This document shows positions 14,313 to 28,423 of a stretch of DNA of 40,037 nucleotides, piece after piece. The notes beneath the pieces are model-generated. The model did no database searches and was not told the origin of the DNA. It worked only from the letters and a program-made list of their open reading frames with translations. Position numbers and translations under genes: made by a program. Position 1 is the first letter of the stretch; each line of letters starts with the position of its first letter. This stretch comes from a bacterium (GTDB lineage Bacteria; Elusimicrobiota; Elusimicrobia; UBA1565; UBA9628), in assembly GCA_021846045.1 (NCBI GenBank), contig JAJZCM010000012.1:1-40037 (forward strand), read 5' to 3'.

Positions 14313-14332
14313 GGGCTTGTAATCTACTGGGC

Positions 14333-14369
14333 CCTTTGCCGGCGCGCATCTAGGATTTTGGACCCATTC
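14333..14369 (+). other. Repeated double-hairpin motif, copy A
   Basis: CCTTTGCCGG (14333-14342), TCTAGG (14349-14354) and CCCATTC (14363-14369) occur here. The same three blocks with identical spacing occur at 28013-28049. It sits 20 nt after the nuoF stop and shortly before the transposase remnant. Its function is unknown. Confidence 0.55.
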
Positions 14370-14384
14370 TTTTTGTTCTCCAGA

Positions 14385-14519
14385 ATGTTATATTTATGGG
14401 GATATGGGACAGTGGCCGAGGCGAAGGCGGGTCTTGGTAAATTCTTCCCGTTCTATAACAACGAGCGGTTGCATCAATCGCTGGACTATCAAACGCCGGC
14501 TTTCGTTGGGGTGACGTAA
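14385..14519 (+). pseudogene. IS3-family transposase remnant (C-terminal end of the integrase core)
   Basis: Only 44 codons remain. The translation YGTVAEAKAGLGKFFPFYNN followed by ERLHQSLDYQTP is the characteristic C-terminal end of IS3-group DDE transposases, which usually ends with a YN..RPHQSL..TP motif. The catalytic DDE residues are missing, and no inverted repeats are seen. The last codons before TAA read through a stretch (CGGCTTTCGTTGGGGTGACG) that looks like half of the palindromic repeats in this window, so the remnant probably joins a repeat half. It marks old rearrangement at the end of the nuo locus. Confidence 0.8.
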
Positions 14520-27968: not shown

Positions 27969-28009
27969 TGCGCATCCTTTTCAACGTCCAAATTCGGGAA
28001 TTCCATATA

Positions 28010-28049
28010 GGTCCTTTGCCGGACATTGTCTAGGCCTTTTGGCCCATAC
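28010..28049 (+). other. Repeated double-hairpin motif, copy B
   Basis: Two tiny stems follow each other: GTCC-TTTGCC-GGAC (28011-28024) and GGCC-TTTT-GGCC (28033-28044). The blocks CCTTTGCCGG, TCTAGG and CCCAT share exact spacing with copy A at 14333. It lies about 70 nt upstream of a small exported-protein gene, so a 5'-regulatory role is possible. Confidence 0.55.
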
Positions 28050-28117
28050 GCCTGCCCTCTTTTTCATGTTTCAATAGGAGAGTAGTTTAGAATTATTGTC
28101 TTACGGGGGATTAAAAA

Positions 28118-28423
28118 ATAAAAAAAATTCTTTCTTCGACTTTAGCCGCCGCTCTCACTCTTGTGTCGCCGGCCTTTGAATGCTCACAGGCTTTTGCCGG
28201 GATGAACGCTGAGGGTCGCGTGGCGGACATCAGCGTCGTGCTTCTCAACGTCCTAGCTTTGCCAGCCGCAACTATCGTTGCGCTCATTATGGGCTTTATG
28301 GAAGGTCAAAGCTCCGGCCCAAAAGCCGCTTTTAAAACAGGATGGGAAAACGTCAAAAACCTAAACAAATTAATTAACGAACACATTTCTGAATTTAAGC
28401 AGGGACAAACTCCGCTTGGATAG
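28118..28423 (+). CDS. Small exported protein with apparent ATA start
   Basis: The frame is open after a TAA at 28112-28114. From ATA at 28118 it encodes KKILSSTLAAALTLVSPAF and a further ECSQAFA, a near-perfect signal peptide with a basic n-region, hydrophobic core and AFA cleavage site. GGGGGA lies about 9 nt upstream of the ATA. The mature part (about 75 residues) has one more hydrophobic helix (ISVVLLNVLALPAATIVALI) and a Lys-rich C-terminus. No ATG or GTG exists before the signal peptide; the first usual start is GTG at 28163, which would remove it. An ATT at 28127 is an alternative. I do not recognise a family. A TAGAAT box at 28088-28093 may be its -10. Confidence 0.6.
   Translation: MKKILSSTLAAALTLVSPAFECSQAFAGMNAEGRVADISVVLLNVLALPAATIVALIMGFMEGQSSGPKAAFKTGWENVKNLNKLINEHISEFKQGQTPLG

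What the first reader, a model, noticed from the sequence alone, without database searches (positions are those of the whole stretch)
14333..14369. Fixed-spacing double-hairpin motif occurs twice
CCTTTGCCGG, TCTAGG and CCCAT occur with the same 16- and 30-nt offsets at 14333 and 28013, although the intervening bases differ. In copy B two tiny stem-loops can form, and it precedes a small exported-protein gene. Conserved blocks with variable linkers suggest an RNA or protein-binding element rather than a transposon.
Basis: seen in the sequence. Interest (0 to 1): 0.55.

Follow-up and report, generated by a model that had tools for sequence, protein, structure and literature searches.

The report
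Tandem activator boxes of secretion-gene promoters
The repeated motif is half of a bacterial promoter: two tandem protein-binding sites just upstream of the start of transcription, used mainly for genes of exported proteins in one class of poorly known bacteria, and probably switched by one conserved response regulator.

Summary
In detail: both copies are exact and none is expected by chance. The motif is a genus-wide promoter element: 26 copies in the own genome, 22-27 in each of four sister genomes. A -10-like hexamer follows at a fixed distance in 26 of 26 own sites and 92 of 96 distinct sister sites. The motif is two dyads TAGGNC-N4-GNCCYA, 23 bp apart, the nearer centred at about -42.5. 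The hairpin reading fails. Downstream genes mostly encode exported proteins. ATG codons peak at the predicted +1, so many transcripts may be leaderless. The nearer dyad plus -10 occurs in 64 of 71 sampled genomes of the class and 2 of 78 outside it. In those 149 it tracks one NarL-family response regulator: both in 64, regulator alone 2, box alone 2, neither 81. This is the only LuxR-type HTH protein found in the own genome. Closest known design: DosR/DevR and OsdR operators. Most likely a response-regulator regulon of exported proteins; binding is untested. Copy A is an orphan promoter cut by an IS fragment; copy B precedes a small exported-protein ORF without ATG.

The parts
14328..14343 (+). 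Copy A, upstream dyad (TGGGCCCTTTGCCGGC; imperfect right arm), predicted centre about -65.5
   Evidence: Sequence; 23 bp upstream of the proximal dyad, the usual spacing in the genus
14351..14366 (+). Copy A, proximal dyad TAGGATTTTGGACCCA, predicted centre about -42.5
   Evidence: Dyad score 9 of 10; the dyad alone is not specific, the window has two further scores of 9 (8111, 37051) without this context
14386..14394 (+). Copy A, extended -10: TG (14386-14387), one base, then TATATT (14389-14394)
   Evidence: position of the hexamer shared with all 26 own-genome sites
14404..14412 (+). Remnant of the original start (ATGGGACAG), 3 bases after the predicted +1 at 14401; homology to the paralogue L003, whose 994-aa frame is intact, runs 14328-14412 and ends here
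   Evidence: blastn 85 nt, 86% identity to L003
14409..14519 (+). Transposase C-terminal fragment (rve_3) lying where the original gene should be
   Evidence: Pfam rve_3 E 1.9e-6, residues 9-38 of window:14385-14516
28008..28023 (+). Copy B, upstream dyad TAGGTCCTTTGCCGGA (imperfect right arm)
   Evidence: Sequence; 23 bp upstream of the proximal dyad
28031..28046 (+). Copy B, proximal dyad TAGGCCTTTTGGCCCA
   Evidence: Dyad score 10 of 10
28070..28075 (+). Copy B, -10-like hexamer TTCAAT (one base further than usual)
   Evidence: offset 22, 4 of 6
28118..28423 (+). Copy B target: small exported-protein ORF, frame I-K-K-ILSSTLAAALTLVSPAF..., start ATA or ATT, no ATG
   Evidence: residues 33-96 of the 98 resemble part of a 722-aa open frame in G004 (56% identity) and residues 32-91 part of a 720-aa frame in G001 (42%); no match in G002 and G003

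Best explanation
The motif is the operator half of an activator-dependent promoter. It consists of two dyads TAGGNC-N4-GNCCYA (the upstream one less regular), 23 bp apart in this genus and mostly 24 bp in other genera. The nearer dyad is centred at about -42.5, on top of the missing -35 hexamer. A -10 hexamer, often with an upstream TG, follows at a fixed distance. Two dimers of a NarL/LuxR-family response regulator most likely bind side by side, as DosR/DevR does, and hold RNA polymerase at a promoter that lacks a -35. The likely regulator is the response regulator at G000:C50 (L263:253-993), found in 66 of 71 sampled genomes of the class. Its regulon is mainly genes of exported proteins, about half of the sites having an ATG within four bases of the predicted +1. 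Shown: motif, geometry, gene context, distribution, co-occurrence. Inferred: transcription start, leaderless mRNA, activation rather than repression, identity of the regulator, the signal.
For: Position: -10-like hexamer (at least 4 of 6) at offset 21 or 22 in 26 of 26 own sites and at 20-22 in 92 of 96 distinct sites of four sister genomes; the -10 was not part of the profile that found them; control windows gave 4-26 of 96. TG of an extended -10 at offset 18 in 41 of 122 sites, against a mean of 6.5 of 124 rows at other offsets. ATG at offset 33 in 40 of 122, background 2 per offset. No -35: at most 4 of 124 rows match TTGACA at 4 of 6 at any of six offsets. Second dyad: in 30 loci of five other genera, found by the nearer box and -10 alone, the mean dyad score peaks at 24 bp (6.4 of 10 against about 3), and 17 of 30 score 8 or more at 20-27 bp against 4 at 40-47. 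In the sister sites it is 88 of 96 against 7, but those were selected with a profile that covers both halves. Genes: signal-like N-terminus in 19 of 25 own targets and 73 of 94 sister rows (71 of 92 without two repeats); background 42 of 119 own-genome ORFs, p 8e-11 on the rows with repeats; 27 of 30 in other genera by a looser rule without background. Regulator: the only GerE/LuxR HTH at E up to 0.001 in the own genome. Orthologue (198 bits or more) and box in 149 genomes: 64 both, 2 regulator only, 2 box only, 81 neither; five class members without a close orthologue (G037, G152, G090, G125, G173) have no box. Helix K-T-I-K-N: the equal-length span to DosR 3c3w (query 4-55, chain 155-206) puts K, K, N at chain positions 179, 182, 183, the numbers of the core DNA-contact residues of DosR (PMC5999986, passages). 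OsdR consensus AGGGCCGATCGGCCCT (PMC5069765, passages) has the same GGNC-N4-GNCC frame.
Against: No binding, expression or start-site data exist here. Co-occurrence follows the tree of the class, so the Fisher p (4e-37) overstates independence, and any class-specific DNA-binding protein shared by the same families would fit; other HTH families were not searched. No dyad of score 9 or more lies in the 252 bases upstream of the regulator gene in its own genome, so there is no sign of autoregulation, which DevR shows. No sensor kinase is evident among the ORFs of the 4.5 kb held, but the gene sits at a contig end, so its upstream neighbour is unknown. All four sister genomes carry a second, related regulator. 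Two regulator-bearing genomes lack a box at this stringency (G088, G176). The two boxes outside the class (one each in G084 and G183) are at the level of the reversed-pattern control, which gave 8 matches in all over the 149 genomes. Some targets do not look exported: a receiver-domain protein (S21) and a GTPase-like protein (S22). The background for signal peptides is a mechanical ORF list of the own genome only.
Confidence: 0.7

Rival explanations
1. The same promoter operator, but bound by a different transcription factor than the NarL-family regulator.
For: Only one HTH family (GerE) was searched; co-occurrence is phylogenetically clustered; no box at the regulator's own gene.
Against: Dyad frame GGNC-N4-GNCC, side-by-side sites with the nearer one over the -35 match the NarL-type DosR/OsdR design; DNA-contact residues match by alignment span; the five sampled class members lacking a close orthologue lack the box.
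Confidence: 0.2
2. A cis-acting RNA element with small hairpins in the 5' leader (riboswitch-like or protein-bound RNA).
For: Short inverted repeats can fold (consensus -4.7 kcal/mol, 1 of 6 pairs with double changes).
Confidence: 0.04
3. Upstream half of a promoter for an alternative sigma factor rather than an activator site.
For: Absence of a -35 hexamer and a conserved block in its place.
Against: The -10 resembles the housekeeping TATAAT; the conserved block is about 40 bp with two dyads about two helical turns apart, and the farther one lies beyond the usual reach of a sigma factor (recalled); in some loci of other genera the farther dyad has the opposite asymmetry.
Confidence: 0.05
4. 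Copies of a small mobile or repeat element (REP/MITE-like).
For: A few paralogous promoters share flanks (L003, L005, L002).
Against: Fixed distance to -10 and gene starts in nearly all copies; core conserved while flanks and linkers differ; same design in other genera with other genes; no exact match to a strict pattern in viral contigs.
Confidence: 0.02

Closest known systems
DosR/DevR regulon promoters of Mycobacterium tuberculosis (NarL-family response regulator)
   Same: Dyad with GGNC-N4-GNCC frame (DosR box sequence recalled); two or more closely packed sites, the nearer overlapping the -35, with cooperative binding (PMC3029386, passages); core contact residues K179, K182, N183 (PMC5999986, passages) at the positions that align with K-T-I-K-N of the candidate regulator (arithmetic on spans).
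   Different: Half-site here is TAGGNC rather than GGGAC (recalled); targets here encode mainly exported proteins; the HTH is only distantly related (DosR entries at E 1.8e-6 to 1.3e-5, behind VraR-type and other regulators); kinase and signal unknown.
OsdR of Streptomyces coelicolor
   Same: 16-base palindrome AGGGCCGATCGGCCCT (PMC5069765, passages) has the same frame and length.
   Different: Different organism and genes; tandem arrangement not checked there.
LuxR/GerE-type activator sites centred near -42.5 (recalled)
   Same: Position of the nearer dyad and TRGGY-like half-site.
   Different: Recalled only; no GerE or LuxR site was compared here.

Membership tests
Activator-type tandem operator/promoter | Fixed distance between binding sites and a -10 element | tested here: met
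   26 of 26 own, 92 of 96 sister sites
Activator-type tandem operator/promoter | Dyad symmetry, second site about two helical turns away | tested here: met
   Independent test in 30 loci of other genera: peak at 24 bp, 17 of 30
Activator-type tandem operator/promoter | Protein binding and activation shown by experiment | not testable with these tools
   No wet data
NarL/LuxR-family response-regulator regulon | Candidate regulator with receiver and GerE HTH encoded in the genome | tested here: met
   Response_reg 3.9e-29 and GerE 3.5e-16
NarL/LuxR-family response-regulator regulon | Regulator and boxes present or absent together | tested here: met
   64 both, 2 and 2 single, 81 neither of 149; clustered on the tree
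NarL/LuxR-family response-regulator regulon | Direct binding of this regulator to the box | not testable with these tools
   -
DosR/DevR system proper | Orthology of the regulator to DosR | tested here: inconclusive
   DosR entries match the HTH only at E 1.8e-6 to 1.3e-5, ranks 17, 18 and 22 of 38; no tree was made
DosR/DevR system proper | DosS/DosT-type kinases and dormancy genes as targets | not tested
   No kinase search; no ORF next to the regulator looks like one in the 4.5 kb held. Filed as working like DosR, not as a member
Structured RNA element | Compensatory base-pair changes in the proposed hairpins | tested here: not met
   0 of 7 pairs in 25 sequences
Structured RNA element | Match to a known RNA family | tested here: not met
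   Only a tRNA in the window at gathering cut-offs

The most novel reading that the evidence does not exclude
One conserved response regulator acts as a master switch for much of the exported proteome throughout a whole class of Elusimicrobiota, through tandem DosR-like boxes at promoters that often start transcription on the initiation codon itself, so that secretion-bound mRNAs form a leaderless class translated apart from ordinary ones.
Probability: 0.3. Interest if true: 0.72.

Novelty: new member of a known kind. Interest (0 to 1): 0.58.

Why it matters
Elusimicrobiota are known mostly from metagenomes (recalled), and their gene regulation is little studied. This gives a promoter signature found in 64 of 71 sampled genomes of the class, a candidate regulator and a list of exported targets (HtrA-like and M1 peptidases, NHL propeller, ankyrin repeats, exported AAA proteins, many of no family) that could be tested in a culturable relative such as Elusimicrobium minutum (recalled as culturable). 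It also offers a way to find secreted proteins of unknown function in these genomes from their promoters, and a set of predicted leaderless, secretion-bound mRNAs. Seven searches of the open-access library for a regulon, promoter motif, binding site or regulator of this group showed no such report in their listings (listings only, capped at 15 of 365 and 10 of 34).

Tried and rejected
RNA hairpins: tested on 25 copies and rejected (a first structure string was misplaced by columns and its numbers are not used). Rfam: tRNA only. Viral origin: no exact match to a strict pattern in viral contigs. Autoregulation of the candidate regulator: no dyad of score 9 or more upstream of it in G000 (isolated scores of 8 or 9 occur upstream of several orthologues without clear pattern, and the outgroup L276 has several up to 10). 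Leaderless translation: PMC10783764 (passages) lists the class Elusimicrobia among those with an ordinary anti-Shine-Dalgarno, so leaderless starts would be a subset, not the rule. PMC12919924 was opened and held none of the terms sought. PMC3162934 (sigma54) was seen in listings only. The signal-peptide test is a home-made rule, which misses some plain signal peptides (S09, S11) and judged S19 on a wrong frame because that gene lacks ATG.

Rows dropped: L025 (shifted spacing) was left out of the profile alignment and, with L015, of the first 75-nt alignment, which was not used further. Two sister rows (L145, L161) repeat neighbouring sites, because a fetched region held two sites and the better was taken; they were removed, but still contain them, and two true sites of G001 were therefore not examined. 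Of 74 matches, 30 became loci and were examined.

Full report
1. The observation. The three blocks occur at 14333 and 28013 with the stated spacing and no mismatch; none is expected by chance in the window. The own genome has 26 copies at up to 3 mismatches and none of the reversed control pattern. A sequence-only profile of 25 copies finds the same 26, then a gap of more than three orders of magnitude in E-value. A weaker full-length hit on contig C68 (20.5 bits) lies in front of a signal-peptide-like 322-aa protein, a probable 27th site.

2. Anatomy. Aligned copies read CTAGGTCCTTTGCCGG-N6-TCTAGGMCTTTRGACCCAT. The second half is a dyad TAGGNC-N4-GNCCCA. The first half has the same frame, but its right arm is usually GCCGG; in some sister sites it is closer to a full dyad (for example L186). 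A -10-like hexamer begins 21 or 22 bases after CCCAT in 26 of 26 own copies, and 20-22 bases after it in 92 of 96 distinct copies of four sister genomes (misses L183, L202, L203, L228). If the -10 hexamer is -12 to -7, the nearer dyad is centred at -42.5, the farther at -65.5, and +1 falls at offset 33. ATG is found at offset 33 in 40 of 122 sites and at 33-36 in 64 of 122, where about 2 per offset are expected. The TG of an extended -10 is enriched and a -35 is absent. These are features of an activator-dependent promoter, many of whose transcripts would be leaderless.

3. Not an RNA. Of 7 pairs in the two hairpins none shows a change on both sides; one pair of hairpin 2 is unpaired in 16 of 25; covariation equals shuffled controls. 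RNAalifold prefers another, long-range fold with one pair of six showing double changes (5 sequences, 4 others broken), close to what independent columns give. The free base at this position varies without regard to its partner, as in a DNA dyad with an unread base.

4. Genes. In the own genome 25 of 26 sites have an ORF of at least 50 aa downstream; 19 of the 25 pass a simple signal-peptide rule, and three of the six failures (S09, S11, S19) look exported by eye. Sister rows: 73 of 94 pass (71 of 92 without the two repeats); background, a mechanical ORF list of the own genome, 42 of 119. Of 22 own targets scanned against Pfam, 10 have a family above its cut-off (trypsin/HtrA with a CAAX-protease-like part, NHL propeller, ankyrin, lysine-decarboxylase/LOG-like, C92 amidase, receiver domain, a marginal GTPase, M1 aminopeptidase, AAA, mechanosensitive channel), 3 have only weaker matches and 9 have none. 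Window copy A: 85 bases of promoter and start (14328-14412) match the paralogue L003 (86%), then an integrase-type transposase fragment follows; the gene is gone. Window copy B: the small ORF lacks ATG (ATA or ATT), and part of it resembles a segment of long frames in two of four sister genomes.

5. Distribution. Exact matches to a strict form of the full motif in the named genome collection are 26 stretches, all in MAGs titled Elusimicrobia bacterium (clean4882, nzgw215) or just bacterium (LSA5.bin12, YF2.bin79, YF2.bin97) (the tool says records near the window's genome may be left out). The full two-half profile is frequent only in the genus: 5 of 5 genomes with 22-27 hits at E up to 1e-4, 4 of 39 other family members with 1-3. 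The nearer dyad plus -10 is found in 41 of 42 family genomes at up to 2 mismatches (some have only one match; reversed-pattern counts are 0-2 per genome). At up to 1 mismatch, with CCCWT, it is in 66 of 149 phylum genomes: 64 of 71 of the class and 2 of 78 outside it. In 30 loci from five other genera, chosen by the nearer dyad and -10 alone, 17 carry a second dyad of score 8 or more 20-27 bp upstream (4 at 40-47), with the mean peaking at 24 bp, and 27 of 30 precede a gene with a signal-like N-terminus by a loose rule (failures L287, L298, L300). So the tandem design is older than the genus; the window's blocks are its local form.

6. Regulator. The frame GGNC-N4-GNCC, close packing and overlap with -35 recall DosR/DevR and OsdR. 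The own genome, 97% complete, has one GerE-type protein at E up to 0.001, a NarL-family response regulator. Over the same 149 genomes, close orthologues (198 bits or more) occur in 66; 64 of these carry boxes; 81 of the other 83 carry none. With the first, stricter CCCAT pattern the figures were 55 of 66 and 1 of 83. Five class members with no hit or only a distant one (31-38% identity) have no boxes. The recognition helix reads S-V-K-T-I-K-N-H; the equal-length span to DosR 3c3w places K, K and N on 179, 182 and 183 (arithmetic on the reported spans, assuming chain numbering equals residue numbering; the alignment itself was not printed). This makes the regulator a good but unproven candidate.

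7. Verdict. A real, well-conserved promoter operator of a regulon of mainly exported proteins, of a known mechanistic kind, with no earlier report seen in seven library searches (listings). The class-wide reach, the coupling to exported proteins and the predicted leaderless starts give it moderate interest.

Noticed in passing
L099 about 8671 (site S19) and L143, L166, L200, L216: An MFS-like (weak Pfam match) exported protein has no ATG: its frame starts at AUC or AUU seven bases after AAGGAG, in all five genus genomes. A conserved AUU/AUC start is rare (recalled) and could mean controlled initiation.
   Followed up: partly
window 28118-28129: The small exported ORF behind copy B begins with ATA or ATT rather than ATG, perhaps a decaying gene or another non-AUG start.
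   Followed up: partly
window 14409-14519; L018/L098: Transposase fragment; a 41-base piece with 98% identity lies beside another motif copy (S18), which also has no proper exported-protein ORF.
   Followed up: partly
L107:411-4127: Signal-peptide-like start, long linker and AAA/Clp-like domains, normally cytoplasmic, in one 1239-aa box target; several other targets have a similar Pro/Ala-rich linker by eye.
   Followed up: no
L104:6517-7038, L159, L181, L207: A receiver-only response regulator with ATG at the predicted +1 is a box target in four of the five genus genomes, a possible feedback into signalling.
   Followed up: no
L264-L267: A second, related NarL-type regulator occurs in all four sister genomes but was not found in the window's genome.
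   Followed up: no
G000:C12 13358 and 17099 (L097): Two motif copies 3.7 kb apart precede proteins that look identical at both printed ends: probably a recent duplication.
   Followed up: no
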